Assembly (NCBI GenBank): GCA_964036295.1
Contig: OZ038472.1
Location: forward strand, 14,180,885 to 14,244,884
Source of the DNA: Plumapathes pennacea
Taxonomy: Eukaryota > Cnidaria > Anthozoa > Antipatharia > Myriopathidae
DNA length: 64,000 nucleotides
Direction: 5' to 3'
Under the pieces are notes generated by a model. It was not told where the DNA came from, made no database searches, and worked only from the letters and a program-made list of their open reading frames with translations. Both the position numbers and the translations under genes were made by a program. Of this stretch, positions 10,300-60,100 are shown in pieces (position 1 is the first letter of the stretch; each line of letters begins with the position of its first letter).

Positions 10300-13200
10300 A
10301 TGGCGTGTGGTTTCCCAATGCCTCGATGTTATGTACGGTGGCCTTCGACAGAGCATCTTTTAATCATGATTACAGTGAGTATTCTGTCAAATATTTGCTG
10401 ACTCACATGTTTTATCAGCCTCTCGGTTGTACAATGTATCTAGCAAATTTTACCCTGCTTGCTTGGCTTCCCTTGGTTTATAATAAACCATTGGTTTATA
10501 ATAAACCATTTAGTATCGCCGCAATTAAGTTTTTTGCTGTCTAAAAATATTTGAGTCAGAGATGTCATTTCCAAAATTATATCGTAGCCATTCGACGATC
10601 CTAATTTTACAGTCTGCGTGCGATTTACTCGCGCCTCGGTTAATGGAGCATTTAATAGAGCAGTGTCGATTACCTGCCATTAATATTGTCGTGGCACTGA
10701 ATAAAATTATAGGTTTGCCGTAGTGTTATTTGGCCTACTACCCACGCAAATACTACATTTTACAGCACGCATGTAAATTTCTCCAAATTGAAGACATGTG
10801 ATCAAAACTTGATCTATTGCTTGCAGTATCACTCGGTTTTACTGTATAGTTTCAGCATAGATATCGAATATCGTGCCTATTCGATACCTGTGTGCATAAA
10901 AGCTAATTAACAGTTTATAAAAAAAAAATTGAAAATATCTTGTTGGTTTCAATGAAAAATATCAAAATTGTACTTAACTGCCAGCTGCGGTGAAAATACA
11001 GTACAAATTGTTGGCATTTATTGCAGCTTTTTGCCCAACTTACATATGAAATTATGATCATTTGAAATTTTTTCCTTTTGTTTTTTCATTAATATTGGCC
11101 AACATCCATTTTGAAATCAATAAGTTTTAAATTAAACATGATACATGCAATTTATGTACGTATGTGTGATCCTCTTGCCTAAAGGAATGGTCCAAGATGT
11201 GCCAGCTGACTGGTGTTATGCTTGACCTCTCATGGTAACTACAAAGATTCATGCAGGTTGAATGTTTGTAATTATAATGCCCTATTATATTTTAATTCTT
11301 TCAGGTTCTGTTAACCTTTGCCACTTGTTCCTGTGGGGCACCAGCTGCAAACAATCGCAGTTGTTCACATAAAGAGTATGCTATTTTTGGCAATGGCAAG
11401 TTTATCACTTGCAGAGAGTGCCCTCCATGTACGATAGGAACTGGCCTGATAAAACCATGTGGTACAGACATAGATATTAAAGATGATATAGACTGCAAGC
11501 CTTGCCCAAATGGTACATACAATGATTATGATATGCCCAAGGTAGTGATGTGCAAGGCTTGCAATATACAGGAAAACAAAGAGGTCATAAAAACATGCAC
11601 GTCAGAACGAAACACTGAATACGGTGCCTGTATCAAGGGTTTCTATTTTCGTGAAGGGGAAGATAAGTGTGTCGAGTGTTCCTGCTGCGTCGATGGTAGC
11701 CACACAGATGACTTTGTCAAGAAGTGCAGTGATGATGGTTTGCCAGGGAACATGCAATGCAAGCAATCTGGCCAGTTGTGTCCTCTCATCTCCACCACCC
11801 CGGCCACCACCTTAGCCACCATTCCAGCTGTCACCTTGGTCCCACCAACACAGATCTCACTATCAGAAGCAGCTCCAAACAAGAATTCTGAGTCCAAAAT
11901 GGAAAACAACAAGCAGGCTGGTTTTCCTAGACCATACTGGGCAATTGTCTTCATTCCCATTATGATAGTTCCGGTTGTCCTACTAATAAGGGTGTTGGTG
12001 AAGCATCGGAGGACAAGCAGCTCTGCTGATGGTACCATGATTGAAATGCAGAATAGAGGAAGAAAGAAAGGAAGAAAGAGTAATGTTTTGTTCATGTTCA
12101 TATTTATACATAATATATTGTTGTAGTTTGATGTTTTTGATTGTCCACAGCTCTTGCTGATTTTTATTGCAACTTAGAAGACAAAAAAAGGCTAAAACTC
12201 AATCTATTTCTCAGATTCAGTAAATGGAAGATAAAACAGTCTTTTCTTTTTTGTGCTGAACAGAAAGGACAGCAAATCTCCAACAACAAGATCTGTTGAT
12301 GAATGAAACCAGTTCCTTAGGGTGGACAAGTGTAGAGGACATTTCTGAGCAAGGTACTGTACACTGTCTAGTACATTTCAGAAATCAACACTTTAATTAT
12401 ATACAGCATATACTGCACATCAGTAGGTATAAGTATCATTAACTTATTTTTGTTTATATATTACATATATTGATCACTTAGACTTCAATAAGCACAGCTT
12501 CAAACTGTGGGGCCATTAAGAAAACCAACTAGGTAATTTCCACTTGAAGTATTTCACTGCACCATGGTATACAAAGTGGAGTCTTGTGGAAACAGGTACC
12601 TTTTCAATTTCAAAACTGATTTTACTGCATGTGGAGGTTTCAAAAAGTGAGACAAAATCTGCCAATTAGAAAGAGATAGCTAAAAGCTCACAGCAGCATC
12701 ACTGCTTTGTTTTCTTCCATTGCACAGAAAGGACTGCAGATCCCAAAGAAGTGTCTGCACTGATCAGTAGTGGTGACCCCAGTTCCTCAGAGCAGACAAG
12801 TGTAGAGGATTTGACTGAACAAGGTATGAATTGTACTAACTCATCAGATCAAAGTTGCAGGTCAGTGAAAAGAATATTTGATTATGAGTCAGCAGTGCTT
12901 GATACAGTATCATTGTCAACTGAATGATTGGCAGGTCATCTGCAAGTGCTGCCAGAGGCTTGACTCAATGTCTGTAATATTTTTAGGACAATCTGGCAGT
13001 GGAGAAGTTCTGACACCTGCAGATCACCCTGATACTCCTGCAGATCATAACAGTAAAGGAATCCAGTGGCCACAAATTCCTGGTAAGAAAGAGTAGCAAC
13101 TTCAACTTTATTAAATTTGTTGTGAGCTGTTAAATCAGAGTATTGCATACGAAAAGATCACAAATGTCAATAGGAACAAGAGACAGCCACTACGTAAACA

Positions 13201-21873: not shown

Positions 21874-24800
21874 ATGATCATGTTCACGCACCCATGTTTT
21901 AGCGCGGTGAGTGCATTCAACTTTTTGTCAATTTTATTGTATTTTACCTGTGTAAACTGTATGACGACGGCTGGCTTGCGGTCGATTTGATTCGTTTTGA
22001 ATATTGCGGTCCAATTTTACGGCCAACGAGTCGAGTCAGATATGTGGTATAGTACGTGTTGATATGGCCGGGACGGTACTTTGAATACTTGGGCTAACTT
22101 TTCTCCGAAGACATAAAAAATGTAGTCTAAGGAGCTAAAATTGCCTCGAATTGCTGCTGCAGACGAAATCGATCGCTTTCGGGCCATGCTGATACGTTTT
22201 GTTGACCGGTTTTTCGTGAAATAATGATATGGCTGCGCGGAGCGAGCAAATTTTCAGATTTACAATTTCCCCTTTCCGAAATCTGTTTACCTGCACGTAT
22301 ATGAGTCCCGCACATGCATGTTGTTACGTTTACATGTAGAGTGGATTTATGTTCTCGTTTCGAAAGATTTAAAAGTTCAGTTCGATGTGAATCCCGCTTG
22401 TTCAGCATATTTTTGTACATATTAAATGTATTAAGATTTCAAAAATATTTTTATTGCATTTTTACCACAAACTTACCACAACTGTCCAAAGAAGTCACAA
22501 TTTTGAGTTGAATGCTAGCGTTTTGTGGCAATTTATGGTACGTATACTGATGGACACACTCAAAAATGATATCATTTTGTTGTGAACTTAATTTGCATAA
22601 AATGTTCGTGCCCCCATGCACGTTTCGTTGTTGGATAAAAGTTATCATTAGCGTCCTGTCTACATTGTAGAGATCGGCTAGCTCTATTTTGTATATTGTA
22701 TCACAGCACACTGCAATTAATCATCACATCAAGAGGTCTTTTTAAATTGCTGCAATAATATTCTTAGTCTATAAGCTTTGTATTTTATACCTGTATTTTT
22801 AGCATTTTTTACATTGTATTTAGTATTTTAGTATAATTCTAACACTTGTATTTTAGCGTTTTAATGTGTTGTAGTTTTAGCATTTCAATTTATTAGTTGG
22901 ACTAGGGTAGGTTTATTATAATAGTGACCCCAATTAGTTTGTCAAAGCTAAATGATTCAGACACTTAAATAGAGTCATTAATGTTATATTATATTACTTA
23001 CAGGTTTTCACTCTGCTCATCTGCTCCATCAGTATCTTGGCTGGTCCAACTTGTGAACCAAAACATGTTTGTGATCATGACCAAAACACCATGGTATTTA
23101 GAAATTGTTCATTCAGCAACTGTAGGGACTGTCCAACTTGTCACATTGGAATGGGCTTAAAGGAGGAGTGCAATAAAGCTATCTTCATTGGGAGTTCCAT
23201 TGAATGCGTTGACTGTATCAATGGGAAAACCTACAATGATGTTGATGCAGAGCGAATAGTGTCTTGCAAATCCTGTAACTTTGAAGAACACCGAAAAGTG
23301 ATTTACCCTTGTAATAGAACACACAACACAAGATATGCAGATGATTGTGATGCAGGCTACTGGTTTTCCAAGCATCCAACTCTGGGTCCCTGCATTAAAT
23401 GCTCTTGCTGTAACAATGATAAGGATCAGGTGGAGAGGAGGTGCCTTGAAGTTGGTGGAAATGTACCAGTGAATACGTCATGCATATGTCCAGTTGGCAA
23501 TGTGGATTCCACACAGCAAAGCAGGACCAATGACAGGACAGTGTCAACACCTTCAAGTACTAGTACTGAAACAGAACCTGCAGCTCCTAAAGATCCAATT
23601 AATATGAGCAGAAGTATAACGTTGAGTACCTTCGAAATTACAGGATCAAGATCTTCAACAACACATGTGTCAAATTGGAAACTTCTTCTAGCTATAACAA
23701 CCGGTGTTACAATTATAATTATTGCTTTGATTATTGTAAGTATCTGTGTTGTGATCCACTACTGCAAAAAGAAAAATGCAACTGGTGGGAACGGATCTGT
23801 GCAGTCTAATTCAGAAGGTTATCAGCTGACAGGAGGTATGCTTACTTACTTTTATATATTATTTTGTAGTCATTTTTTTTATTAACTGTTCAGACTACAG
23901 TATAGAGAACTGTCTTCATTCATATAACGTCACTTACAAATTCTATATATATTACATATTAAGAGAATTTTTGCTGTAAAGTTGAATAATGATCATGGTA
24001 AAAGGAAACAAATCCTTGTACCAACACAATTTATTTGTGATTGAGAATTTTTTCCCACAACCTTGATGCCAGTATCTTTCACTGTAGCCAAGAGATAATT
24101 CACAAATCTCTCTAAGAAACAGGAGAACAAATATTTCTATCAAACTCTTACTTTGTGATGATGACACACGTGCTATTGCATATTTTGAGCTACAAAAGGC
24201 AACCAAAATCCCTTTAGTTGATAGCCAAATAGTCAAACTAGGAAATTAAAACAAATCACAGAAGAGTGCTTCTTTTTTTGGTACAGAATTTTTGCATGCA
24301 TTGCTTGTATTTATAGTGTAAAAACCTCTTAAATGTTATTTTTAATTTGTAAATTTATTTGGTTTATATTATTTTTTACATGATTTTAAATTTCATTTTT
24401 TACTGTATGTTGAAATTCATTTTTAATATCATTTCTTTATAGATCTCCATTAGCTCAGTCATATGTCAAATTGTTTCTACATGACTTTTATCAATCACTT
24501 TTAAAATACAGACAATCTGATTTTTTTATCTATTTTGAGCACTGTACTACTACAGCTTGGTGCACAGTTTTAGCATGAAACCTGTCCAATATGCTACTGT
24601 ACTCAACTAAAAATTGAACATTGTAATAATTAAATTATTAAAGGCCTCCAAAATAATTGTCACCACAGACTATTCTTTTGACATTTTCACTGTAGACAAT
24701 AGCAGTCATTTAGGGCAACAGAGGGGCTGTATTCACTAAACTTGCATACGAACAAATATGTTTAATAATATTATTATGACTTTTTTTACTCATCATAAGT

Positions 24801-38637: not shown

Positions 38638-41093
38638 ATGGCCGCTGCCTTCAGGAGCTCCCCTGAAAAAACCAACTATGCCAAACTATGTCAGCTCATC
38701 ATTGATGGTGGAAGATTAGCACTTAAAAAAGTATTTGATGGCTTCCATGCTCCAGCCAACTTGCAGACTGCCCTCAATAACAACATCACTTCTCTCCGCC
38801 GGTTACAGCGGATGAGGGTTTTAAGAACAGATCAGTGGGACCTTCTGTTTCCTTCATCAGTTGGAGTAGTTCCTGACTCTAATACCTTTGATATTACGCT
38901 GCTGTTTACTCTTCTTCGAGAAATCTGTGGATTGCACGAACCAGCATCAGGATGGAATAACAAGCCACCTCTGAGTGACATATCCCTTGAAGCAAACTTG
39001 GTGCGGATAAAGTGTTTTCGGAATGAGCTTGCTCATAAACCCACTACAGAATTTGATGAGGCAACTTTCAACAATTACTGGGCAGAGCTCTCAGTCACAC
39101 TGGTTCAGCTTGGTCTTGACCAATCAGCAATTGATGGGCTTAAGAGAAGCATAACTGTTGATGAAGACCAGTACATAAAGCTTCTGGCTGAGTGGAAGCG
39201 GGAGGAGGACAGCATCAGAGAGCAGCTTGAGACTGTGATTAAGAATCAAGGGGATATTCAAGAGAAGCTTGAGCTGGTACATCAAACTCAAGAATGTCAT
39301 CTTTCAAAGGTACAATACTGTTAGTAATTTTGTGCAGAAAACAATACTACCCATACTAAGTTTAGTAGATGATTTGTACTACAGATAAATAAAACCATTT
39401 AGATACATGCACTTTTTTTTTTGTAATAAATAATGTCACCCCTCTTCTTGTACCAGATCAACATGATCATAAAGGTACAGTATATCTGACCTAATGTTTC
39501 ATCCTGCTTTGGTCAACAAGTAACTCAGTAATTTCTGCATTTGGACCCTCCTTGGTCTTTACTGTATGTGACTGTCCTCAGGTCATCATTGACAATATTT
39601 TCCAATAGTTTTCAATAGTTTCAACCTTGAAAACTGAATAAAGTAATTTTTTAAGGGGCCCTCTCAACCACAGGCCTTTGCATGCCAAATTCCTTGGTTC
39701 TACTATTTTTGGGGCCCCCAAAAGTTGAAAAATGAATAGCAATCCACTTCCATCTGACTTGTTTGAGGAAAAGATGAGTTTTTTTAATCTAAAGTGCTAC
39801 TAAGTAACCTATTTTTCTTTTGATTAATTACATTCTTTTGTGTTGGGAAGCAAATTCAGCCTTGGATTTTCCAGATGTAAGCAAAAACATTGAAAAGGCT
39901 GAGAGCGCCCTTTAATATTCGAAACATTAGAGAGTTTAAGATTGCTCTATTCCACAGCTCACAAACTTTAAACCTCAAACCACAAGAAGTCACACATCAT
40001 GTCTGCCATAGTTCTGTTATGTTTTCAATGGGCATTTCCTGGATGAGGCAAATACTGCAGCAATAAGCTCATGTTATTTCATAATTTGCTGCCTTTAGTG
40101 ATTTTTTTGCAGTTTGTGAGCTGCAGTATACAGCGATCCTTAACTGCATAATACATTTAACTTACAAACATCTGCAGGAAGTGTGGCTGCCAGATTTTTT
40201 CTAGTTGAGGACTGTTATGTGTATTTCCTGACAACTGCAGCATTTTCTTGTGTTTGCTTTACTTTGCAGCATGAAGAAGGTGATGAAGTAGTTGTTGGTG
40301 ACATCAGGTACATTCACAATGATGTACATCTGCTTGGCAGAGGCAGCATAGGTACTAGGGTGTACTCAGGAACTCTTGTTTCATCTGGGCAGAGAATTGC
40401 TGTGAAGAGGATTAATGCTGATTCATTTGACCTGAGTGAAGCTGTGCGCCTAAAACAACTGAAACACTCAAACATAATAAAGTGTTTTGCGGTTGAGAAG
40501 AAAGGGGATTGGATATATTTGGCATTGGAGCTTGGCAGGAAAACCCTGAGAAAATGCATCGAAGAGAATGACTTTGGAGAGAAGAAAGTGGTGTCAAGAG
40601 AATTGGCTGCCTGAAGGAAGTCACCAGAGCAGTTGTGTACCTGCATGATTGCAACATATGTCATCGAGACATAAAGCCTGACAACATACTGTTGTTTAAC
40701 TCAGTTTCCCCAAGGTTTGTTCTTGCTGATTTCAATACAGCACGAGAATCTGGCTCCAACGAGTCCTCCTCAACACAGCATGGCTGCAGTGCTGTTGGAT
40801 CCTATGGTTACATGGCCCCAGAAGTATACAACCTTGGTAAAAGAACAAGGAAACAGGACATTTTCTCTCTGGGCTGTGTTGCTTACTACACCCTGACCAA
40901 CAAAGGCCACCCTTTTGGGACAATCCAACACCTGAGGATATGCCAAAGTAACATCAATCGTGGCAAGGAGCCATCCTTAGAAGATGATTTCCTTGATGGT
41001 GTCTGGATGAAGTCAACGATAAAAAAAATGATTTCATCCCTTCCTGAACAGAGGCCAACTGCAGAGGAAGTTCTTTTATCTCTAGAGGTATAG
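38638..41093 (+). CDS. Gene A: DZIP3-type HEPN domain fused to an IRE1-like kinase, frameshifted
   Basis: Exon 1 is 38638-39309 (224 codons), preceded by acceptor CTCTTGCAG in the 5' UTR. Exon 2 starts at 40270 after TTTGCAG; both junctions are phase 0. Exon 1 is a HEPN domain with the R-x4-H motif (R128 to H133 in FRNELAH) and a charged C-terminal helix. Exon 2 is a kinase resembling IRE1: Gly loop GRGSIG, lysine in IAVKRI, HRDIKPDN, DFN in place of DFG, and YMAPEVY. One base is missing near 40597 (FGEKKVVS shifts to RIGCLKEV), so the kinase frame breaks. The gene is a pseudogene, or the base is a sequencing error. Where gene B has donor GTAAGT, A reads GTATAG, giving a stop at 41091-41093 with AATAAA at 41222. 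A therefore probably lacks gene B's Ser/Thr tail. Confidence 0.72.
39310..40269 (+). other. Gene A intron
   Basis: The first roughly 40 bases (GTACAATACTGTTAGTAAT) match the start of the gene C intron at 57856, so the A/C duplication extends into it; beyond that the two diverge. No exon seen inside. Confidence 0.5.
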
Positions 41094-42792: not shown

Positions 42793-45397
42793 AAAAAGTA
42801 GGTTAAATGATTTTCATTTAAGTATAATGTATAATGTCATCTAAGAAATCCTTACTATTAAGCGAAATATTGACGCGAGTCCTTGACGGATGAGGCAAGG
42901 GGCAAGAGATTGACCTGAATTCATTGGAGAGTGGGAGATGAGGTGTGGATTTGGGAGACAGGAGTGAATCCTAGCACAACAGAATGTAGTTGTACTTGAC
43001 TTTTTACCAGTCCTCGCATGTACAGTATATTAGTCATCTATTTTCAAAAGCAGGCCTCAAGGCATTAGCAGAAGCTATTACAGAAGCTATTACCCACTGT
43101 ATAACTTTAGACAGATAAATTTAACGGTAAATGTACTATACTACTTGAAAAGGTTGGAAAGCCCGGTAAGCTTGGTAAGTTTGGTAGTCAATTTTAGATG
43201 TTACAGTAAATTAGGAGTTATTTAAAAATCTTTTTCTGTGATATGGGTGAATAATCAATAGAATAAAGTCGAGGGTTTAGTGATAATCACACGGCATTGA
43301 AAATCATTAACTATACTTTCCCAGTGTTGGGATGGGCGCAACAGACGCTAGAAGCCATATCGTCAGCCTTGTGCCGTTAAATCGAGCACTGTGACTCCCT
43401 GTTTATATTGCATCGCTGTAACCCACTTGGGTTGTTGTAGAATTGTGCCAAGTTTTATTATAAAACTATTACAGATTCTTTTTCTAGGGAATCACCTTAA
43501 AATTGCCACCAGGATCATATTCCCTTACTTGAGGGGCCCAGTTTAGGTTTTTCAGGATATGTGGTTATTTTGGCAGAAGTTATGGTGGGGACGCATGATT
43601 AATTATGTGATTTACGATTTACACGGCTTTCATATGTCCCTTGGCATGTTGATGGACAGCAGAACAGAGCTAGAAAGGTTGGTCTTGAACCCGCATCCTT
43701 AGCATTAAAATTAACTATGCCAGGGGGTACTCCCATATAAAAAAGGGTAGGGATGCTCGTCGGGAATTTCCTTTTTAACCCTCGGGCGGTACCAAAATGG
43801 ACGTGGCTCGAGCTTATTTTAACCCCTAAAAAGTACCTAACTGTATGACATTAAATTACATTTCAAGGTCGGTGCAAGGAGTGATTCTCACCACGTCTGT
43901 CGGGAAAGAATCGTCCATGCATTCATTGTTGTTCCCGGGCCTGGAGCCTCTCGTAAGACCCGAGTTAGAAAAGAAATTCAACGTTCTATTTGATGAATTG
44001 CTTTCTTTGCTTGTCACCAGAATTTTACGCTGTCAAAACAGGGTCGTAAATTAAAGCACTTTTTTATAGACAGGGTAGTGAAAGTTTGCATTACAAACTT
44101 GTGGTTAAACAGAGTCAGGGTTTGAGGGCATTAGCGAAACTCTATCTTCACCCCCACCCTATCCGATCCTGTTGAGTTGTCAAGGAGGGGGAAACCCCTC
44201 GCAAACAATAAATGTGAAAGTATTTTTTCCTAAAAATCACTGAGCCTTTTCGTTTAATTCTTAGTAAAGGTGTGTATACCGATAGTGTATGCATGCTGTC
44301 GATTCTGCACTGGCTAAGCCGAAGGAACCTTGACGCGGAAGAAACTGTTGAAGGAAGTCGGCCAGACTGGTACACGATCTGATCATCAATGCTTTTCACC
44401 AACCACTCTGTCTGTTATGAAGACTACTCCCACCTGGACGAGTCAGAGCAACTGATACTCCTGGGCTAAAACCATTCGTCATTTCACCATCCTGACTCAG
44501 CATGTAAGTGACGCTTAGGCTAGTGTATACGTATTCCGTTTGCAGCAATGATTCTTACTTTGCATTCAGCAGAATTACTAATTAGCATGACAGAAGTCAG
44601 TCTCTTTACTCGAAGCTGATTCCGTGCGACGCTAGTCTACCTGTCTGTTTTTGCCTACTGTAACACAGTTCATTAGCTAGGAAAGAATATAATTTTAGTG
44701 CCAGACGGAAAAAGGGAACTGATCCTTCGGCAATCATTTTCTTAGTTGAAGAAAAGAAATTATAAAAGATATTAATATGACTTAGCACATAGCACGGTTT
44801 ATAACAATATTTTATCATTGCATGTACACATGGTTCGATTTATCACACCACAGCAACCTGATATATGAAATATTTCAGTTATTGACTTCCCGTCCACCTC
44901 CGCTACACCTTCACCATGGCAACCAAACTATACAAACAACACTTGAATCACGTGAATCACTATTTGCGTCATCATAAGATACTATGGTTACAGTGGACAA
45001 AAGATCAGTCGTGCCTAATGACTAAATTCGGCAAACAATAGTGCTAAAGACTATAATAAGCACACAGACTCAGTCAGCGTTCTTGGTTCAATGCTTTCCT
45101 TTGGTCATTAGGCGGAAACAGTGCAAGGCCTATGCATGCGTGTCCTTCCTGAGGAAGATGTTAAACAAGCAAGCCTGCATAACAACGATTCGAACGGTCT
45201 GGCTGTAATTTTGATAATAGGCCAGAGTATACAACTACCTACAGTGATCAGAAACTGTGCCAAAAAAACCTTTCTATTTTTTTTCTCAAAACTACCGTAA
45301 GGAAATATCATTTAAACGAGACGAGATTTCAAAATATTTCGGGGGGGGGGGAGGGGGGTGGAAGGGAGGGGGGCATGCCACTGGACCCCTCTAACGG
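42793..45397. repeat. Tandem duplication, copy 1
   Basis: It starts AAAAAGTAGGTTAAATGA and ends ACCCCTCTAACGG. It matches 45464-47184, but holds about 880 extra bases (roughly 43160-44039), including a piece of the GGGGGTACTCCCATATAA element near 43722. No gene is supported; the frames at 43845 and 44148 lack recognisable content. Confidence 0.8.
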
Positions 45398-45447
45398 CTT
45401 GCGCTTTGAGCGCTCGTCCCTCCCCCCCCCCCCCCCCCCCCCCCCCG
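45340..45447. repeat. G run and C run between the duplicate copies
   Basis: A run of Gs near 45341-45370 is followed by a long run of Cs at about 45424-45446. It marks the join of the tandem copies and could fold back or be misassembled. Confidence 0.7.
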
Positions 45448-45463
45448 GCTTAAAAGGATAAAA

Positions 45464-47184
45464 AAAAGTAGGTTAAATGATTTTTATTTAAGTATAATGT
45501 ATAATGTCATCTGAAGAAATCCTTACTATTAAGCGAAATATTGACGCGAGTCCTTGACGGATGAGGCAAGGGGCAAGAGATTGACCTGAATTCATTGGAG
45601 AGTGGGAGATGAGGTGTGGATTTGGGAGACAGGAGTGAATCCTAGCACAACAGAATGTAGGTGTACTTGACTTTTTACCAGTCCTCGCATGCACAGTATA
45701 TTAGTCATCTATTTTCAAAAGCAGGCCTCAAAGGCATTAGCTATATATATATATATATACAGAAGCTATTACCCACTGTATAACTTTAGACAGATAAATT
45801 TAACGGTAAATGTACTATACTACTTGAAAAGCTTGGAGGGTCGTAAATTAAAGCACTTTTTATAGACAGGGTAGTGAAAGTTTGCATTACAAACTTGTGC
45901 TTGAACAGGGTCAGGGTTTGAGGGCATTAGCAAAACTCTATCTTCACCCCCACCCTATCCGATCCTGTTGAGTTGTCAAGGAGGGGGAAACCCCTCGCAA
46001 ACAATAAATGTGAAAGCAATTTTTCCTAAAAATCACTGAGCCTTTTCGTTTAATTCTTAGTAAAGGTGTGTATACCGATAGTGTATGCATGCTGTCGATT
46101 CTGCTCTGGCTAAGCCGAAGGAACCTTGACGGAAGAAACTGTTGAAGGAAGTCCGCCAGACTGGTACACGATCTGATCATCGTTGCTTTTCGCCAACAAC
46201 CCGGTCTTCTAAAGACTACTCCCACCTGGACGAGTCAGAGCAACTGATACTCCTGGGCTAAAACCATTCGTCATTTCACCATCCTGACTCAGCATGTAAG
46301 TGACGCTTAGGCTAGTGTATACGTATTCCGTTTGCAGCAATGATTCTTACTTTGCATTCAGCAGAATTACTAATTAGCTTGACAGAAGTCAATCTCTTTA
46401 CTCGAAGCTGATTCCGTGCGACGCTAGTCTACCTGTCTGTTTTTGCCTACTGTAACACAGTTCATTAGCTAGGAAGGAATATAATTTTAGCGCCAGACGG
46501 AAAAAGAGAACTGATCCTTCGGCAATCATTTTCTTAGTTGAAAAAAAGAAATTATAAAAAATATTAATATGACTTAGCACATAGCACGGTTTATAACAAT
46601 ATTTTATTGCATGTACACATGGTTCGATTTATCACACCACAGCAACCTGATATATCAAATATTTCAGTTATTGACTTCCCGTCCACCTCCGCTACACCTT
46701 CACCATGGCAACCAAACTATACAAACAATAACACTTGAAGCACGTGAATCAATATTTGCGTCATCATAAGATACTATGGTTACAGTGGACAAAAGATCAG
46801 TCGTGCCTAATGACTAAATTCGGCAAAACAATAGTGCCAAAGACTATAATAAGCACACAGACTCAGTCAGCGTTCTTGGTTCAATGCTTTCCTTTGGTCA
46901 TTAGGCGGAAACAGTGCAAGGCCTATGCATGCGTGTCCTTCCTGAGGAAGATGTTAAACAAGCAAGCCTGCATAACAACGATTCGAACGGTCTGGCTGTA
47001 ATTTTGATAATAGGCCAGAGTATACAACTACCTACAGTGATCAGAAACTGTGTCGAAAAAACCTTTCTATTTTTTCTCAAAACTACCGTAAGGAAATATC
47101 ATTTAAGCGAGACGAGATTTCAAAATATTTCGGGGGGGGGGGGGGGTGGAAGGGAGGGGGGCACGCCACTGGACCCCTCTAACG
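45464..47184. repeat. Tandem duplication, copy 2
   Basis: It is collinear with 42793-45397 apart from the missing roughly 880 bases; the junction lies at GCTTGGAGGGTCGTAAATT (about 45832). A TA microsatellite lies at about 45741-45760. It ends about 200 bases before gene B. The frame at 46735-47001 is intact only in this copy and is not recognised. Confidence 0.8.
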
Positions 47185-47390: not shown

Positions 47391-50300
47391 ATGTCGGACT
47401 TCAAAAATTCTGAGCGGACAAATTTCGCCAATTTGAGCCGCCTGATTGTAGATGGGGGAAGATCAGCTCTGCAGAAAGTGTTTGATCGTATTCATCCACC
47501 AGGCACATTAAAAACTGCGTTCAACACAAATGTCGCCGTGCTTAAACAACTTTTGGTGAAGAAAGTCCTGTTTCAGCCGGAATGGAACCTACTTTTTCCT
47601 TCAAATAAATCAGTGCCCAAATCTGCCAATTTCGACATAACGTTGCTGTTTGTCCTTCTTCGTAACATCTGTGGATTGCGCCCACCAGCGTCTGGATGGG
47701 ACAGTGATCCACCAAAATGTGACGAATCACTTGAAGCAAACCTCATACGAATCAAGCGGTTTAGAAACAAACTTGCGCATGCAACTTCAACAAAGATTGA
47801 CGAAACAAGCTTCAACACATACTGGGAAGAGTTGTCGCACACCTTGGTACAACTTGGACTCGACGAAGAAGAAATTGATACCTTAAGGGTTGGTTCCCTT
47901 GACGATTTGCTGTTCAAGTGGAAGTGTGCAGATGATGAGCTTAAAAAGAAGATTGAGGAGATCAGACAAAATCAAGTACATCTGTTGGATGTCGTTACTC
48001 AAGGGCAATTCTCAAAGGTTGGTGATTGTTCTCATTGCAATATTGACAGCCCTATTGGCGTCTGCCTTGTCGCTTTACATTATCCGTCGGTATTTAAAGA
48101 GCAGCTTACATCACTTCAAAGCATTTCAAATCTACGGGACATTAAGATAAGTGTTGTCTAACTGATGCACTCCGGCGTAATATTTTATGATGTTGAAAAC
48201 TGGGGCCGGATTTAAAAAATATGCGTACGAACGAAAATGTTCGTAAGTATGACTTACGCATCAGAACAATGACTTTCGCATACTATCTTGCGCAAAGTAG
48301 TATGCGTCAGTCATACTTACGAACATTGTTGTAAGCAAGTTTTGTGAATCCGGCCCCTGGTCTCCCGACTGTGCTGCCGAATATCCAGGCAACGCCGGGT
48401 ACAGAAAACCGAAATTTGCTAGTAGAGTAACAAGTATGCTATAATCTAACCAGTTACAATACAGGCTGTAGTGTAGTTTAAGATTGGTTTATTATATATG
48501 GACTCACGCCGCCGGAACAGTTTCAGGTTTCCTTAAAGTTCGTAATGTTTAGTATACTATATAGTGATCAATCACCGCGAAAAAGATTGTCTCTGGAAAG
48601 CTGCAATTCTGGTCAAAAGTATGTGGGACAATCTGCAAAAACGCTATTTTTCGCCATCACTCCTTGTTCCACAACAAAAGCGGCTCCACCCTCCCCCCAT
48701 GCAATGTTGCTTGAAAGGGAGTGCACTTTGAGCACATTCAGTCAACATTGTAAGGGGGGAGGGGAACGGGAAGAGTGAAAGTGTCTTAATTTTCAGATAA
48801 AAGGCTAAGTGTCCCATTGACTTTTGACCAGGATTGTAGTTAGTAACTCACTCACGACCACTTTTGCTCTTTTGCAGAAGAAGACTATAGGGAACATGAA
48901 GTTCTGTCAGGACGAAGCCCATATACTTGGTAAAGGGTGTAGAGGCACTGAAGTTTACAGTGGAATACTTTTGCCTTCTGAGGAGCCCATAGCAGTGAAG
49001 AGGATGTACTCCGGGATATTTAACATAGACGAAGCTCTGAAGTTGAGAGCTATGGACCACCCAAATATAATTAAGTGCCTTGCAGTGGAGAAAAATGACG
49101 TATTTATTTATTTGGGACTACAGTTGTGTACTAAGACACTAAGGAGATGCGTGGAGATGAATGAATTTGGCATACAATGCAGCCCTGTTGACAGATTGGG
49201 ATGCCTGAGGAATGTCAGTGAAGCAGTTGAGTACCTTCATGAGCGTAATATCCGTCACAGGGACATCAAACCCGACAACATACTGTTGTCTTCCACATCT
49301 CCTCCACACTTTGTCTTGGCAGACTTCAATCTTGCGCGAGAGTCAAGTGCAAACGAGTCAACCCAGTTCGGCAGCATTGTTGGGACGTATGGCTACATGG
49401 CACCAGAAGTATACAATCTCTGCGAAAGAACGACCGTTAAAACGGACATATTTTCCCTGGGCTGTGTATTTTACTACGTTCTCACTGACAAAGGCCATCC
49501 ATTTGGATCGGTAGAATGCATTAAAAGATGTCAAGCCAACATCAATAAGCGCAAGAAACCATCCCTGTGTGAAAACGTCTTCATTGAGTGCGCTTGGATG
49601 AAACCGTTGATCGAACATATGATTTCCTTCGAAGTGATGCAACGACCAACAGCTGCAGAAGTTGTAAACAGTATCAAGGAGGTAAGTGAAGGAAGACCTA
49701 TTTGACGAAGTGTAAAGAAGGCATAACTCTATATGCGACTAATTACTTGGTTTGTATTTGCTTATTAACTGAAGTATTTGACTCGTCTGCAGTAACTTGT
49801 TAACGTTGATCATTAAGTATTAACCGAATGTGGCAATTAAAACGACCGCAACTTTAGACGTTCCCTGAAGCAAGTTTCTTTTTTCCCTCTTTTCTATTTT
49901 TTTTTCTACGTACCAGTAGCAAATCTTTCCATTGTTTTATTTATTTATTTATTTATTTATTGTTTTCCTTGACAGTAAATTAAAGTGGTGACTTTATAAC
50001 GGAATACGGATAACGGAAGCTTGATTACAGTAAACTAATGACCACTTTTCTTTGTTTGTATGCAGCCGCCCCTGCCATCAGTTCACACAGACCAGCACAG
50101 GTACATGTTTTTAGACAATTTTGCGTAAATCTTCTTTTTTTTTTTTTTTTTTTTTTTTTCTTCTTCTTTCATGTCCTGCATCTATTGTTTTTAGTTGCCG
50201 CTTCCTTTTTGTTGTTATTTGTTGTGTCAGTATTTTCAAGTGGGAGTTTACTTGTGCTTCTCATTATTTTGAGAAGAATAGGCGGCCTCCCTATTACTGT

Positions 50301-53300
50301 AAGTTACACCTGATCTCGAACACGAAATGGGGAATTAATCCTCAACTCAGTATGTTTACTGTATTAATCCTTTGAAAGCCAAATCTATTTTTACAATTTC
50401 TAGAACTTTATACTTACAATACCAAAAATTTCGATAGCAAATAATATTTTTCAGATATCGATCTGAAACTTGCATGTGATGGGGCGATGAAGTAGGTGAA
50501 CTATGTTATTAGGGGATTTGAAAAAAAAAAAGACGTTTATTGACACATATCACGTGTCTGAAGTTAATCTTGTCTATTTGTCGTGATCATTGTAAGGCCT
50601 AAAAGATCACGTATTCTATTGACATGCGCCAAACAGAGCGTATTTGATTATAATTCACGTGTTCCTTCAATACCTTATCTCTTACACTTCTCTTTAGGGT
50701 GCTGGATGATTAAGAGAAAGGTTTTTATAAGTGCACCATTACTAGTTTTATTAATTCTGAACTTTAACTGAAACTTAACGCTTCAAAGTTACTGCATGCG
50801 GGGCAGGTCTTTAGGCGTTGAAAAATAGGTGATGATACACGATGGCAACAACAATTTTTATTTTCGATGTATTTCACAGAAGCAGTACTTACTGACTATT
50901 CAATTAGAAATTTATACCACGATTATATTTCTATCTGTTCACAGCTTTAACTCTGTATTCAAAGACTCTGGGTGTACTGCCTCAACACCTGAGATGGCGA
51001 CAGCAACAACCTCAGGCGGTGAGTTCAGTCTGTCGTCAGTTAAAGCCTGTGACAAAACGTCCACACCCGGAACGTTGACCCCATCAGGTGTTTATTCTGG
51101 GTTTAGACCATCAAAAGAAAGATGTTCCACTGCAAAAGCAATGTCTATCTCATTGACCGCTAAGACACCAAGTGGTTGCACTGAAAGAGAAACGTCTTCA
51201 CCTTCTGTACCCGTACCAAGACCTATGACGGCTTGTGCAGCTCCGTTACCTGAGTCATGCTGGTCGTCGAGTGTTAGTTGCGACAAAACAAGCTCAGAAT
51301 CAACAGAAAAGTCATCAAGAGCTCGCACTTCTGGTGAAACCTTGCCGGCACCTCTTCCGTCAGGTGTAAGACCTATGACGACTTCTGCAGCCTTATCGTC
51401 TTCGATGTTTAGGCCGGTGATTGTAGGCAGTGGCACAAGAAAGATGACAGCTAATGATGCAACCCAAAGTGAATCGAGCACTCGAAGTGGAAGCTCGGCA
51501 TCTACGACACGATTATCAAGACCTGTTACAGCTCCTGCAGGCTCGTCCCGTTCTAAGCTGTCAAATGTAGGCAGTGGTATTGAAAAGGTTACCTCCAACC
51601 AGTCGACCAAAGAAGTACAATCACGTACTCACAGTGCAGATGGAAACCCCACATCTACATTGGTAACCTCAAGTTCTGCGCCAACAACTGGGTCTGGATC
51701 AAGCACGTTGGCCTCAAGTAGTGATCACACTACAGGCGGAAACTTGGCAACAACACTTCCATCAACTAAGACGGCACCAAGATGTTCAACAGTATCCGCC
51801 GCAGACTTGCAGTCCAGCTCTTTGTCCACGAGAAAGCCATCAAGTGCTTGTTCTTCAAGTGAACCATATGCAGATGCTGATTCAATTGTAAACTTTATGG
51901 TAACATCTCCAGCCCCGTATTTCAAAATTACACCAAATATAAGCAGCGCAGTGACATCCGGGTCGTCACTTAGTGTAAACGGTGTCATGACGGAAATGAC
52001 ACCAAGTGAACCGGTTCCACCTACAAGCTCCTCGTCTATATATGACATGCCTACTACGAGTTCTACAACTGAGAACTTACTCCCCAGTGTTTCAAACCCA
52101 GTGGCAATGACAAATGATGGAGTATCTTTACCTTTATCAAAGGCGTCAAACAGCAGCTATACAGGGCTAACGTCAGCCGAGTCAGCCTTAACAAGTACGC
52201 CTGTTCCTGAGACGTCTTTGCAACGGCCGAGTACATCAGGCCCATCAGGGAATAACCGTTGCACCGAATTCCCAACATCTTGCTCGGAGCTAACAGGTAA
52301 CATCAATTCACGTTGGTCTAAAACCAGAGAAAGGACCTCTTCCATTGGGGAAATAACTGATATCAGCCACGCAACGAAAGACAGAAGCCATTTAATGAGG
52401 TCCAATAGCTATGCTGGTACTGGGGACGTGGTACGTAAAACCCCGTTGTCTTTGTTAAGGCGGTCGAACGTGAAAGCCAATGACTCACCAGCGACCTGTA
52501 AAATCTTGACGACTGAGAAGACAGCATTGCAATATTCCAGGCATTTCAAAGATTTAACGACAACAGCACCTGTATCTTCTCCAAGTTTGGAATCGGATAT
52601 AGGTGACTGTGCGTTGACGAAACACCTGAAATCCATGATGCCGTCCGAGGAATCCCCCAGTTCAGTCGTGACGAGTGAAGATCCATCACCTGCAGGTCGA
52701 AAAAGAAGCTTCTTGATGGGAGACCTTAATATGACTACTACAAACGTGGAGCGTGCCTGTGACTTTGGAAGACGGATGTCCATCAGTTCATCTGAATCTG
52801 CAGCGACGATGCATGACAAATTGTCATCAAGCTCGGTACCCAGCAGTGGCTCCACAACAGAACACGTGACATCCATGATGCCTTCCCAGAAATCGTCTGT
52901 AGAGTCCATTGCATGCGTGGCAAGTGAAGATTCATGCCCTTGGCCAAAGCTGTCAGAAACAAACGAAGCAGTTGAGGTAGCTCCGGCAACTGTTACAAAA
53001 TCAGACTTTCCTTCAGTTTGCTCATCGAGCACTGCTACTGTTGATATAAACCTGACTTCTAGTGAAACTGGTACAAATACAAATGGAGCCATTTCCAACT
53101 TATCTCAGGCCCGAAACAGGACTTCTTTCGTTGGCAAAGTGACCAAGAGTACTCGGCCAATGAGTGCTACAAGCCAGGGCAATAAATGCTCATCCAGGCC
53201 AAGACCTTCCAGCGCTACCTGTACGTTTGGGGAAAAGCCACACAATCTGCTAAAATCAATTCCTAGTCTTGGTTCAGGGAATGTGAAGCCTAGCGGTTGT

Positions 53301-55199
53301 ACTACTGAAAATTCACCAACAGAGTCAAGACCATCAAGTGATATCTCTATAACAGATGCAAGGTCAGCATCAACAAACAGTGTGGAATCTAGGGTTAGCG
53401 TTTATGAAGCACCTCTACCATTGTCTTTCCCTGTCGCTGCTGAATACAAGACATCCGAAATACCAGCCATTAAAGGTCTGTCCATAACATTTTCATATGC
53501 ATGTGCAGGTCGAAAAAGAAGCTCCTCGATGGGAGACCTTACCATGACTACTACAAGTTTGGAATCGGATATAGGTGACTGTTTGGCGACGAAAAACCTG
53601 ACATTGATGATGCCGTCCAAGGAATCACCTAGTTCAGTCGTGGCGGGTAAAGATCCATCGCCCGCAGGTCGAAAAAGAAGCTTCTTGATGGGAGACCTTA
53701 CCATGACTACTACAAAAATGGAGGGTGCCTGTGATCTTGGAAGACAGATGTCCATCAGTTCATCTGAATCTGCAGTGACGGTACATGACATATCGTTATC
53801 AAGTTCATTACCCAGCAGTGATGGCTCTATGACAGAACACGTGACATCCATGATGCCTCCCCAGGAATCGTCTTTAGAGTCCATTGCATACGTGGCAAGT
53901 GAAGATTCATGCCCTCGGCTAAAGATGTCAGAAACAAACGATGCGGTTGAGGTAGGTCCGACAACTGTTACAGAACCAGACGTTCCTTGCGTATCGGGAA
54001 CCGTTACCAGTTCCTTACCGTCATTTGGAGTCTTTTGTAATGTTCCTCAGACCCAAGACAGAAGTTCTTCCACTGGCGAACTGACCGAGACTATCCGGCT
54101 AATAAGTGATACAGGTCAGGCCACTACGCTTTCAGAAACAAACGATACTGCTGAGTCGATATCATCAGCTATAACAGATGCAGACACTTCTTCAGCTGGA
54201 GCATTGGGCACTGTCTCTTCAGCAAGTTTGAGATCGAGCATTAATGGTTCTGAAGCAAATTATCTGCTACCTAGCGTGCCAGTATCAACAGAAGCTGTGG
54301 AAGCTAGCGGTTCATCAAAAAGACCTATTGCGTCACTCTCAAGCTCTATACCGCCGTATGAACATGGTCAAAGTCCAATGCTCTCTACTAAAGTTAAAAG
54401 TAGTTATGGGTCAATACCTTCAACTGCCAGGAACTTGGAATGTGGAAGCATGATTGATACAATGCAAATATCTTTGTTGAAGCAATCTAACATGCAAGAT
54501 GGGAAACGTGAATTTTCTGACGAACTTCCGCCGAAAACTAAGATTACGCATCCGTTATCTTATTCAAAGCATTGTTCTGATTTTACAATGAAATCATCCT
54601 CTACCTCACAGCTTTCAAATGTGGCTGGGTATTCCAAATTACAGCGAAGAGCAGCCAGTGCCGGTGCCAGTGTTTTATGTGGAAACTGTGCATCTGCTGT
54701 GTCTCCTAAAAGACCAGTAACAGCCACAGGGAGCCAAAGGTCTGACTCTTCGGATTGCCCAAAACTATCGAAGACTCTCTCTGGGAATAAGGGCTCAGCG
54801 TCTCGTACGTCGTCAACCCCTCGCTCTGCATATGAAGATCTAAAGTCGGAACACAAATCCCGTCCCCGCCCTTGTCCAAGGTCATTGAGTGCTGGCAGTA
54901 CAACTAGAAATCCAGCAGGTATTGCATCGAAGTCAACACAATCTTCCAGAAGTGGTTCATCAAGTAAGAACTTGTCGAATGAACAGTCTTTCTCTGGCCA
55001 ACGGAATCCTAGACTAGCAGTGAGTGACGAAGGCTGTTCACATTGGTGTGAACTATCTGAAAGTGACAGACACAGACGCATGCAGTCTCCAACGTTCATG
55101 ACAACGCTAGAAAATCCAAGATTACCTTTTATCAGACACGGCAACCTGGCATATCAAAAACAAACATCGCAAAAAAGCAGAATTTGCCTTATTTTATAA
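47391..55199 (+). CDS. Gene B: HEPN (DZIP3-type) - IRE1-like kinase - long Ser/Thr-rich tail
   Basis: Exons: 47391-48017, 48878-49681, 50066-50100 and 50945-55199, giving 1906 residues; phases 0, 0 and 2 all match. A 5' UTR acceptor (poly-T then CAG) ends at 47364. Residues 1-209: HEPN domain with R-x4-H (R125 to H130, FRNKLAH), the motif that catalyses RNA cleavage in active HEPN nucleases. Residues 210-477: kinase most like IRE1/RNase L, with GKGCRG loop, K250 (IAVK), HRD at 336-338, DFN at 358-360, YMAPEVY and DIFSLGC. Residues 490-1906: one exon of Ser/Thr-rich low-complexity sequence with internal duplications and repeated GRKRS..MGDL sites. The last residues SRICLIL end in a CaaX-like box with Leu last, which would predict geranylgeranylation and membrane attachment. 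No signal peptide or membrane segment is seen. The joining of tail to kinase rests on splice phase only. Confidence 0.78.
48202..48357. mobile_element. MITE in the HEPN-kinase intron of gene B
   Basis: It begins GGGGCCGGATTTAAAAAATA and ends TTTTGTGAATCCGGCCCC, with inner inverted parts TGCGTACGAACG and ACTTACGAACATTG. It belongs to the same family as 24723-24910. Confidence 0.75.
49682..50944 (+). other. Gene B introns 2 and 3 with one 35-base exon
   Basis: These hold the small exon 50066-50100 (TATGCAG acceptor, donor GTACAT), a TTTA microsatellite near 49940 and a poly-T tract at 50132-50158. Nothing else seen. Confidence 0.45.
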
Positions 55200-57174: not shown

Positions 57175-60100
57175 ATGGGAGATCTGGCCACTGCCTTCAG
57201 GAGCTCCCCTGAAAAAACCAACTATGCTAAACTATGTCAGCTAATCATTGATGGTGGGAGATTAGCACTTAAAAAAGTGTTTGATGGCTTCCATGCTCCA
57301 GCCAACTTGCAGACTGCCCTCAATAACAACATCACTACTCTCCGCCGGTTGCAGCGGGATAGGATTTTAAGAAAAAATCAATGGGACCTCCTGTTTCCTT
57401 CAGCTGGAGTAGTTCCAGCCTCTAATACCTTTGATATTACACTGCTGTACACTCTTCTTCGAGAAATCTGTGGATTGCACCCACCAGCATCAGGTTGGAG
57501 TAACAAGCCACCTCTGAGCGACATATCCCTTGAAGCAAACATAGTGCGGATAAGGTGTTTTCGGAATGAGCTTGCTCATAAACCCACTACAGAATTTGAC
57601 GAGGCAACTTTCAACAATCACTGGGCAGAGCTGTCAGTCACACTGGTTCGGCTTGGTCTCGACCAATCAGCAATTGATTGGCTTAAGAGGAGCATAACTG
57701 TTGATGAAGACCAGTACATAAAGCTTCTGGCTGAGTGGAAGCGGGAGGAGGACAGCATCAGAGAGCAGCTGGATACTGTGATTAAGAATCAAGGGGATAT
57801 GCAAGAGAAGCTTGATGAGCTGGTACATCAAACTCAACCACATCATCTTTCAAAGGTACAATACTGTTAGTAATATTGTGCAAAAAACAATATACTAACA
57901 CTATGAAAACTTGAAAATGCATCACTGTGCAGGTGGTCTGAACTAAACCAGACTTTGCTGTGTGACAAACAGTTTTTTTTTTGTTGTTGTTGCAGCCAGC
58001 CTACTGGTGACATTGCACTACACAACCATGATTTGCAAATGATTATTATATAATATCACCTAGCGGAACATTGAGAAGAATCCTGCATCTTGTAGATAAT
58101 CAAATGTGTTTTACTGTAGATTATAGGCATGCATGCACTTGTAAATATGTGCTAAAACTAAAGAATTGTACTATATTACAAAATGCAGTGTCTAATCTAT
58201 AGCAGTATAAGCTGATGTATGGTATATAGGAATAATATAATTTTACAATAATTTGTAGATCTGAACCCAGTTTTCTTTTGCAGAAAAGAAGATCTTCCAA
58301 GCGGTCCCAAGCAAATGCTTCTGGGCTTAGTGCAGTACCAAGGAAACAGTAAGATATGATTTTGTTGATAATCTTTTCAGTACCGACAGGTGATTGATAA
58401 AAGCATAAGAAGTTGTAATCATAGATCCATTCCTGGATGTTTATGCTTATTACATTACTAATAACATGCATACAATAATTTCTGCATTCTGACTGGCTGA
58501 GCGCACGTCAATTTATCCCAAACAGTGCAGAAATGTGAAATTTAAAGAGTGCAGAAATTTGAAATTAAAAATTGCCAACAGTTGGCACGTGTATATGCAA
58601 AGGCAAACAAAACAAAAGGGCATGTTTTCATTCCTCAGGAAGTTCTTGAGATACTTTGTGAATTGTAACAAAATTGAAAAAAATTGTGCAACATAAATTT
58701 ATTATTGTATGCATGTTATTAACAAGTGATCACATGATTTCTTGTGCAATTTTGGAATAAATTAGCACTAATAAATTTTTCACAGATCACAAATTGCACT
58801 CATGCAATTTTGTCATCTTTAAAAAATTTACTCATGCTAATTTATTCCAAATTGCACTCGAAATTATGCGATTACCTATACTTACTGACCTCACTGGTGC
58901 TCTATTGTTCCTTCTGACAATTGCTTCTGCTTATGTTGCTACTGAAAACCATAAGCCTCTAGCAAACAACTGTGTTTACAGAGTTTATTTTCATATTATG
59001 TTTTCTTATTCTTAATACAGCCATGCACTCTTATAGTTGACATACACATCATATTTTTTTTAGATCAGTACAGTATATATAATATTATACAATAAATATA
59101 ATGATTTAAGGGAACAAATTGCTTCAGGCATATGAAGGATACTCTGCATAATCAAACTATAACAGATATGACAGTAATGCCAATGCATTGATCAGTACAG
59201 TAGTATGGTAATATGGATTTTATAAGAGCATTTATTATATTAGGCACGAGTGTTTTACTGTAAAGTATAATGTGTGTAAAATCCATACAAAACTACATCC
59301 GGGTCCCAAGTGGTATATTTTTAATATCCTGAGAACATCGATGGCATCATTTCTCACTTTTGTTTGTGCATTTTCTCTTAAAACACTCATGTCTATATGA
59401 TAAAAAGAAAATTACACGGTGGCTTAAAGGTACGGATTTTATTTTCTTGTGGTAAAAACAATATTTTTACTCACTCGCGCAGTGCTCATTCGTAAAACAT
59501 TGTTTTTACCACTCGAAAATAAAATTCATATCTTCGCGCTGCTTTGTAATATCCTCTATTTATTATACAGACACGAGTGTTTTACTGCAAAATATACCGT
59601 GCGTAAAATCCATACGAAACTACATCCGTGACCCGAGTGGCATATTTTCCATATCCTCACTAGTGAGGATATCGTTGGAATCATTTCCCGCTTTTGCATG
59701 GTTGTTTGTCATAAAAGACTCATGTGAAATATAATAAAAAGAAAATTACATGGAGGCTTGAAGATATGGATTTTATTTTCTCATGGTAAAAACAATGTTT
59801 TACTCACTCGTGAAGCGCTCATTTGTAAAATATTGTTTTTACCATTCAAAAATGAAATTCATATCTTCATGCCACCGCGTAATATCCTCTATATATAATA
59901 TGTTAGTGCATGAATCTGGGTGACAGTGCACTAGACCATAATTACTCAACTAATATTAAAGTACAGTTACCTTGCAAGTCACTGTAGTCATTGTAGTCAT
60001 GTAGTCATTGTAGTCACACTAGATTCCACTTCTTCATTCAGTTTAGTGTTGTTGTGACAATGTTCAGAAGTTGTTTTTGAAGTTTTTTCTTGTGTTGTAG

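What the first reader, a model, noticed from the sequence alone, without database searches (positions are those of the whole stretch)
47391..55199. HEPN domain placed before an IRE1/RNase L-like kinase: a reversed-order RNase-kinase protein
Seen: exon 1 has a DZIP3-type HEPN domain with an intact R-x4-H motif; exon 2 has an IRE1-like kinase; both junctions are phase 0. Established: IRE1 and RNase L carry kinase then KEN ribonuclease, KEN has been placed in the HEPN superfamily, and kinase dimerisation switches the RNase on. Inference: gene B keeps both parts in the opposite order with a different HEPN family, so it may be an independent kinase-gated RNase used in stress or antiviral defence.
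Basis: partly seen in the sequence, partly recalled or inferred. Interest (0 to 1): 0.87.

Follow-up and report, generated by a model that had tools for sequence, protein, structure and literature searches.

The report
HEPN RNase joined to IRE1-like pseudokinase
A genome, probably of an animal, carries a family of genes that appear to join a predicted RNA-cutting domain to a kinase related to the stress and antiviral sensors IRE1 and RNase L, in the reverse order and with a different cutting domain, which looks like a separately assembled RNA-cutting immune switch.

Summary
Exon 47391-48017 is a DZIP3-type HEPN domain (Pfam E=8e-46) with R125-N126-x3-H130. Exon 48878-49681 is a kinase whose 16 best PDB sequences are all IRE1 (E=6e-36; next kinase 5e-21). 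Gene B belongs to a family: 38 such kinases on five contigs, 23 with a HEPN_DZIP3 match as nearest HEPN, upstream on the same strand. Phase-0 GT/AG junctions can be read in 9 of 10 pairs held whole (the exception, L016, has a phase-1 donor); one intron is only 205 bp, and 9 of 10 kinase exons have no Met before the beta-3 lysine, so fusion is likelier than neighbouring genes. The next-closest kinases in this genome are KEN-linked (18 of the next 20), and no KEN match lies near the HEPN-kinase loci. The DFG glycine is Asn in 10 of 10 aligned, where RNase L, a pseudokinase, has Asp. One copy continues in phase into a RIG-I-like helicase, another is followed by an OTU domain; gene B probably continues into a Ser/Thr-rich tail. 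Likely mechanism, inferred: the kinase is a nucleotide-bound dimer scaffold that pairs HEPN domains into an RNase. RNase activity, dimerisation and transcripts are untested. New variant of a known kind.

The parts
47391..48017 (+). gene B exon 1: DZIP3-type HEPN domain, residues 1-209, R125-N126-x3-H130
   Evidence: Pfam PF18738 E=8e-46; motif invariant in 10 of 10 aligned copies; in-frame stop 21 bases before the ATG
48018..48877 (+). intron 1, 860 bp, phase 0, GT...TTTTGCAG
   Evidence: a phase-0 junction can be read in 8 further pairs
48878..49681 (+). gene B exon 2: IRE1-like kinase domain, residues 210-477; HRD intact, DFG is DFN; a symmetric 0-0 exon if the donor GAG|GTAAGT is used
   Evidence: Pfam PF00069 2.5e-37; IRE1 best PDB relatives; alignment
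50066..50100 (+). probable exon 3 (35 bp linker)
   Evidence: acceptor and donor read in sequence, phase fits exon 4; inferred only
50945..55199 (+). probable exon 4: Ser/Thr-rich tail, about 1418 residues, no Pfam domain found, with an internal duplication of about 975 nt
   Evidence: open frame of 1456 codons, no Pfam match, repeats D4 and D7
38638..39309 (+). gene A HEPN exon (paralogue)
   Evidence: Pfam 1.9e-43 on the open frame; tblastn; donor AAG|GTACAA
40270..41087 (+). gene A kinase exon, reading frame broken near 40578-40587
   Evidence: tblastn in two frames; Pfam on both pieces; acceptor
57175..57855 (+). gene C HEPN exon, no kinase found after it in the window
   Evidence: Pfam 1.2e-44 on 57175-57867; donor AAG|GTACAA; kinase tblastn hits only at A and B

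Best explanation
Gene B encodes one protein: an N-terminal DZIP3-family HEPN domain, an IRE1-family kinase that has probably become a pseudokinase, and probably a long Ser/Thr-rich tail. It belongs to an expanded family in which a HEPN-kinase core is followed by different C-terminal parts (RIG-I-like helicase in L017, perhaps OTU in L018, Ser/Thr-rich in B). Mechanism, inferred: the kinase domain, with nucleotide bound, pairs two chains as the IRE1 and RNase L kinases do, bringing two HEPN domains together so that their R-N-x3/4-H motifs form one metal-independent RNase site; the C-terminal part senses or localises. Shown here: domains, conserved motifs, readable conserved junctions, purifying selection, kinship with KEN kinases, no KEN match nearby. 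Inferred: splicing in vivo, nucleotide binding, dimerisation, RNase activity, the defence role.
For: Domains. Active-site motif invariant in 10 of 10 aligned HEPNs and seen in 27 of 30 further fetched HEPN loci, the other 3 not having been extracted by my pattern. 23 of 38 family kinases have their nearest HEPN upstream on the same strand within 12 kb, on 5 contigs. Phase-0 junctions in 9 of 10 pairs held whole, one intron 205 bp; in 9 of 10 aligned kinase exons the first Met lies after the beta-3 Lys. Next-closest kinases are KEN-linked in 18 of 20; a tree puts the family with KEN kinases apart from three of four other kinases (97/86). DFG glycine is Asn in 10 of 10 aligned; RNase L, described as an inactive kinase thought to scaffold dimers, has Asp there (PMC4718504 passages). 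HEPN dimers form a composite site in Csm6, likened there to Ire1 and RNase L (PMC4748810 passages). dN/dS 0.10-0.30 in 21 of 21 kinase pairs; 0.08-0.41 in the 17 of 28 HEPN pairs where dS could be estimated. One copy continues in phase into a RIG-I-like helicase.
Against: No transcript, no structure model, no assay. 15 of 38 kinases have no HEPN within 12 kb; L010, one of these, matches L009 and L014 only from 160-180 bp before its kinase exon onward, apart from one 196-base piece, so the pair is not obligatory. In L016 the upstream HEPN is divergent, its nearest matching HEPN-to-kinase gap is 4 kb and its best donor is phase 1, out of phase with the kinase acceptor, so at least one of the 23 pairs may not be a fusion. 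Gene B's tail has no recognisable sensor. No solved structure matches this HEPN, so its dimer geometry is unknown; in IRE1 and RNase L the nuclease follows the kinase, here it precedes it. HRD, beta-3 Lys and DFG Asp are intact in B, so phosphotransfer is not excluded.
Confidence: 0.6

Rival explanations
1. HEPN and kinase are one protein, but the HEPN is an RNA-binding or targeting domain without RNase activity, and the kinase is an ordinary active kinase that signals.
For: HRD, beta-3 Lys, the catalytic-loop Asn and the DFG Asp are intact in gene B; a coral genome paper calls DZIP3-like HEPN domains RNA-binding (PMC10236652 passage); some HEPN families that lack the motif are proposed as non-catalytic binders (PMC3710099 abstract passage).
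Against: R-N-x3/4-H is invariant in 10 of 10 aligned copies; the DFG glycine is replaced in 10 of 10, and the three C10 copies also have HRDIN and DCN, which argues against a conserved phosphotransfer role.
Confidence: 0.22
2. HEPN and kinase are separate neighbouring genes that merely travel together in tandem arrays.
For: Both are exon-sized open frames; HEPN matches without a family kinase exist (31 of 54 unpaired, gene C among them) and so do kinases without HEPN (15 of 38). AATAAA occurs in the intron of 4 of 7 modelled copies. In L016 the best HEPN donor is out of phase with the kinase.
Against: Phase-0 donor and acceptor in 9 of 10 pairs held whole, 205-bp intron on C2, no Met before the beta-3 lysine in 9 of 10 kinase exons, gene B being the exception; nearest HEPN upstream on the same strand in 23 of 23 pairs under 12 kb.
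Confidence: 0.06
3. Decaying duplicates of an immune gene array with no present function.
For: Gene A's kinase frame is broken; C3:14040587 has a stop inside its match; 15 of 38 kinases have no HEPN within 12 kb.
Against: Gene B is open through both exons; dN/dS is below 1 in every pair that could be estimated; 36 of 38 kinase loci show no stop within the match (gene A and C3:14040587 excepted).
Confidence: 0.07

Closest known systems
IRE1 / RNase L (kinase-KEN ribonucleases)
   Same: Kinase domain of the IRE1 family; partner is a domain of the HEPN superfamily with the R-x4-6-H motif; non-Gly at the DFG third position as in RNase L
   Different: No KEN domain found; nuclease before the kinase and from the DZIP3 HEPN family; no ER-lumenal or ankyrin sensor in gene B
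DZIP3/hRUL138 HEPN proteins of animals (fused to NACHT, DEATH, CARD, TPR, RING and others)
   Same: PF18738 HEPN at the N-terminus, lineage-specific expansion, immune-type partners
   Different: Partner is an IRE1-like kinase, which is not in the partner list of the DZIP3 row of the PMC3710099 table (passage) nor among the partners named in the passages I saw of PMC8260672, which surveyed NACHT proteins
RIG-I-like receptors (relative at L017 only)
   Same: DEAD/ResIII helicase and RIG-I_C pieces in order
   Different: Preceded by HEPN and kinase exons with no CARD match near it; anthozoan RLRs are described as mostly single-CARD (PMC8998645 passage)
Csm6 and other dimeric HEPN RNases
   Same: Composite two-chain active site expected from the same motif
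   Different: The Csm6 dimer is held by CARF and by 6H/HEPN interfaces, with no kinase (PMC4748810 passages)

Membership tests
IRE1/RNase L family | IRE1-type kinase domain | tested here: met
   PDB sequence searches; own-genome ranking and tree
IRE1/RNase L family | C-terminal KEN domain (PF06479) | tested here: not met
   23 KEN matches in the genome, none near the HEPN-kinase loci; gene B's tail has no Pfam match
IRE1/RNase L family | Kinase dimerisation switches on the RNase | not testable with these tools
   structure prediction switched off; no bench data
IRE1/RNase L family | ER-lumenal/TM (IRE1) or ankyrin (RNase L) N-terminal sensor | tested here: not met
   N-terminus is the HEPN exon starting at its own ATG after an in-frame stop
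DZIP3-type HEPN family | PF18738 match above gathering score | tested here: met
   155.8 bits against 27
DZIP3-type HEPN family | R-x4-6-H motif | tested here: met
   10 of 10 aligned; x4 in the C11 and C2 rows, x5 in the C3 and C10 rows
DZIP3-type HEPN family | RNase activity | not testable with these tools
   no assay; no solved relative
RIG-I-like receptor (relative L017, not gene B) | DEAD helicase plus RIG-I_C in order | tested here: met
   Pfam, order and Walker A exon; the C-terminal end was not fetched
RIG-I-like receptor (relative L017, not gene B) | N-terminal CARD | tested here: not met
   39 CARD matches in the genome, none near C10:13.8-14.1 Mb; a divergent or split CARD could be missed

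The most novel reading that the evidence does not exclude
An animal lineage has built a second, independent RNase L: an IRE1-family pseudokinase freed from KEN and recombined, as a symmetric phase 0-0 exon, with DZIP3 HEPN RNases, then coupled to exchangeable C-terminal sensors, among them a RIG-I-like helicase, so that an RNA sensor and an RNA-destroying effector sit in one polypeptide with no CARD, no MAVS and no 2-5A messenger.
Probability: 0.4. Interest if true: 0.87.

Novelty: new variant of a known kind. Interest (0 to 1): 0.72.

Why it matters
RNase L and IRE1 are the textbook case of a kinase fold used to switch an RNase. A family that uses the same kinase lineage with another HEPN RNase on the other side would test whether kinase pairing is a general way to switch HEPN RNases. 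The helicase-bearing relative suggests a one-protein sensor-effector for foreign RNA, which bears on how animals without interferon answer RNA viruses.

Tried and rejected
Rejected: two separate genes (junctions, 205-bp intron, no Met before the lysine in 9 of 10), with L016 as an exception that may really be two genes. Rejected: a KEN hidden downstream of gene B (no Pfam match in the frame of 1456 codons; KEN search). Led nowhere: Rfam scan of the window, no match; HEPN against PDB sequences, single and profile, nothing significant; GFP family search as a hint to the host, nothing, and the tool said this does not show absence; looking for a shared exon after the kinase among distant copies, none convincing, only the linker exon of L017 read by eye. 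The NACHT search did not complete. The host was not identified; that it is an animal is inferred from its TNFR-, CARD-, Death- and RIG-I-type domains, and 'probably a cnidarian' would be a guess. Rows dropped: the kinase tree used 10 of 38 family kinases, 18 of 20 KEN loci (L051 and L068 gave no long kinase frame) and 4 others. Papers: PMC3710099 was seen as passages and section 9; PMC8260672, PMC8195603, PMC10236652, PMC8998645, PMC9334734, PMC13319465, PMC4718504 and PMC4748810 as passages only. Library searches listed no paper whose title or abstract start reports a HEPN-IRE1-kinase fusion; several listings were cut at the number of rows asked for, and subscription papers, preprints and protein databases were not searched, so prior annotation of this architecture is quite possible. 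The identities of the beta-3 Lys, alpha-C Glu and Walker A motif are my own reading of the sequence, recalled motifs.
Full report
WHAT IS THERE. The window lies in a genome of 290 Mb in 24 contigs, at C11:14180885-14244884. Exon 47391-48017 (209 aa) matches HEPN_DZIP3 at E=8e-46 and exon 48878-49681 (268 aa) matches a protein kinase at 2.5e-37. The kinase's best 16 PDB sequences are all IRE1 (6.1e-36 to 6.7e-29); the first other kinase is at 4.9e-21. A profile of 10 family kinases finds 16 PDB sequences at E up to 1e-38, 16 of 16 IRE1, and the C10 relative L018 also ranks IRE1 first, 6.9e-41 against 2e-25 for the first other kinase. The HEPN motif is R125-N126-K-L-A-H130. After the kinase, a 35-base exon (50066-50100) and a long Ser/Thr-rich frame (50945-55199) can be joined in phase, giving about 1906 residues by my count; this last part is a model without independent support.

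IT IS ONE OF A FAMILY. Kinase searches of the whole genome with two different family members gave the same 38 loci (gene A appears as two pieces and is counted once; the tool calls such counts lower bounds). They are separated from the other kinases by a gap in score: 154 down to 109 bits, 199 down to 97, the small N-terminal piece of gene A apart. There are 54 HEPN_DZIP3 matches. For 23 of the 38 kinases the nearest HEPN is upstream, on the same strand, 0.4-9.8 kb away; for 15 there is none within 12 kb, all 15 of them on C3. The pairs lie on C2 (1), C3 (14), C5 (1), C10 (5) and C11 (2). The C3 kinases lie over about 1.9 Mb (14.04-15.95 Mb), and the C3 loci that I compared are mostly 89-98% alike over several kb, so the 23 are not independent. 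L010, a kinase without a HEPN nearby, matches L009 and L014 at 93-94% from 160-180 bp before its kinase exon onward, but not upstream apart from one 196-base piece; L011 is 98% like L010 throughout. So some copies have lost their HEPN or exchanged what precedes the kinase.

WHY ONE PROTEIN. Ten pairs are held with both exons (B, A, L009, L012, L013, L014, L016, L017, L018, L035). In 9 of 10 a GT donor after the HEPN exon and an AG acceptor before the kinase exon keep phase 0; the 7 introns measured run from 205 to 2834 bp. The exception is L016, whose HEPN is divergent (29-37% identity to A and B), 4 kb away, and has its best donor in phase 1, so it may be spliced to something else. The C10:13907490 HEPN was not seen. 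In 9 of 10 aligned kinase exons the first Met lies after the beta-3 lysine, so these exons can hardly start a working kinase themselves; gene B is the exception, with a Met at residue 7. AATAAA occurs in the introns of A, L013, L014 and L017 and not in those of B, L012 and L018. Purifying selection acts on both exons: dN/dS 0.10-0.30 in 21 of 21 kinase pairs and 0.08-0.41 in 17 of 28 HEPN pairs, the other 11 being saturated; many of the estimated pairs have dS above 1.5 and are rough, but the recent pairs (dS 0.08-0.4) give 0.20-0.41.

ORIGIN OF THE KINASE. Of the 20 best-scoring kinases outside the family, 18 lie directly before a KEN domain on the same strand (40-202 bases away), and 20 of all 41 listed. 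These include ankyrin-kinase-KEN genes (for example L057) and an LRR-kinase-KEN gene (L049). In a tree of 32 kinases (10 family, 18 KEN-linked, 4 others) the family is one clade (100/99) and groups with the KEN kinases apart from three of the four others (97/86); the fourth falls among KEN kinases. The tree is rooted at its midpoint, the branches are long and the tool warned about long-branch joins. No KEN match lies near the HEPN-kinase loci. So the most economical reading is that a kinase of the IRE1/RNase L lineage was parted from KEN and placed behind a HEPN of another family.

STATE OF THE TWO CENTRES. R120, I121, R125, N126 and H130 are invariant in 10 of 10 aligned HEPNs; spacing is x4 in the C11 and C2 rows and x5 in the C3 and C10 rows. 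Of 30 further fetched HEPN loci (some of them the same genes) 27 show the motif; 3 were not extracted by my pattern. In the kinase the beta-3 Lys, a Glu in the place of the alpha-C Glu, HRD, the catalytic-loop Asn and the DFG Asp are invariant in 10 of 10, but the DFG glycine is Asn in 10 of 10, and the three C10 copies also have HRDIN for HRDIK and DCN. RNase L is held to be an inactive pseudokinase thought to scaffold homodimers, with Asp505 at the DFG glycine position (PMC4718504 passages). KEN kinase L049, the best outsider, reads DFD at this place.

SURROUNDINGS OF RELATIVES. L017 (C10): after the kinase exon comes a short in-phase exon and then an exon with a Walker A motif and no Met before it in its frame, followed by DEAD/ResIII (1.1e-12, 4.5e-14) and RIG-I_C (6.8e-16) pieces in order. 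Read by eye, the codon across the last junction is ATG, so an independent start there would need the same splice. L018 is followed by an OTU domain (6.8e-17), and OTU also lies about 1.2 kb after another C10 kinase; the OTU exon does hold a Met before the domain and could be a separate gene. L016 has a Death domain 4 kb downstream (4.8e-10), not tied to the gene by any junction. Of 5 RIG-I_C matches in the genome 4 are on C10, each with a HEPN upstream on the same strand 4-9 kb away, one with the kinase between; two of these four, and the fifth on C11, have a stop inside the match. None of 39 CARD matches lies near them.

MECHANISM. HEPN RNases act as dimers with one composite active site, shown for Csm6 and likened there to Ire1 and RNase L (PMC4748810 passages). 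My reading is that the kinase domain, nucleotide-bound, pairs two chains and so pairs two HEPN domains; the C-terminal part decides when and where. Only the anatomy is shown; dimerisation, cleavage and immune role are inferred.

WHAT IS KNOWN. The HEPN survey's row for DZIP3-type HEPN lists TPR, Zn-ribbon, RING, ankyrin, CARD, NACHT, DEATH and LRR as partners and no kinase; its KEN row lists kinases (PMC3710099 table passage; I saw 12 of 32 places and section 9, not the whole text). Cnidarian surveys report HEPN-NACHT expansions (PMC8260672; PMC10236652), TRADD-N proteins with HEPN or RLR parts (PMC8195603), and cnidarian RLRs mostly with one CARD (PMC8998645), all seen as passages. I found no report of HEPN with an IRE1-like kinase in the library searches, but annotation in protein databases, which I could not search, is likely.

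Noticed in passing
L017 (G000:C10:14021500-14031400, minus strand): HEPN, IRE1-like kinase, linker exon and RIG-I-like helicase exons follow one another in phase: a possible RNA sensor with an RNase module in place of CARDs.
   Followed up: partly
G000:C10:13.83-14.11 Mb: Three further RIG-I_C matches, two of them with a stop inside, have a HEPN_DZIP3 match 7-9 kb upstream on the same strand but no family kinase between; no CARD match lies nearby.
   Followed up: partly
L018, and G000:C10:14039926-14040318: OTU domains follow two HEPN-kinase loci on C10; a third locus (L016) lacks the middle of the matching OTU stretch.
   Followed up: partly
L049-L068 (several contigs): The genome carries about 20 kinase-KEN loci; of two checked with Pfam one has ankyrin repeats and one has LRRs and a DFD motif: an expansion of RNase L-type genes beside the HEPN-kinase expansion.
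   Followed up: partly
window 40270-41087: Gene A's kinase exon has its reading frame broken near 40578-40587, so this copy may be a pseudogene or the assembly may hold an error.
   Followed up: no
window 44061-47149: A tandem duplication of about 1.79 kb, 91-98% identical in its pieces, ends just upstream of gene B.
   Followed up: no
window 52576-53988: The Ser/Thr-rich exon holds an internal duplication with about 975-base spacing, 87-90% identical, both copies in the open frame.
   Followed up: no
window 11296-12123 and 22956-23882: Cysteine-rich frames that look like TNF-receptor-type membrane proteins; the first has a sub-threshold TNFR_c6 match (8.2e-6), the second none.
   Followed up: partly
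window 59242-59900: Direct and inverted repeats of about 70-100 bases with about 330-base spacing, perhaps a small mobile element.
   Followed up: no
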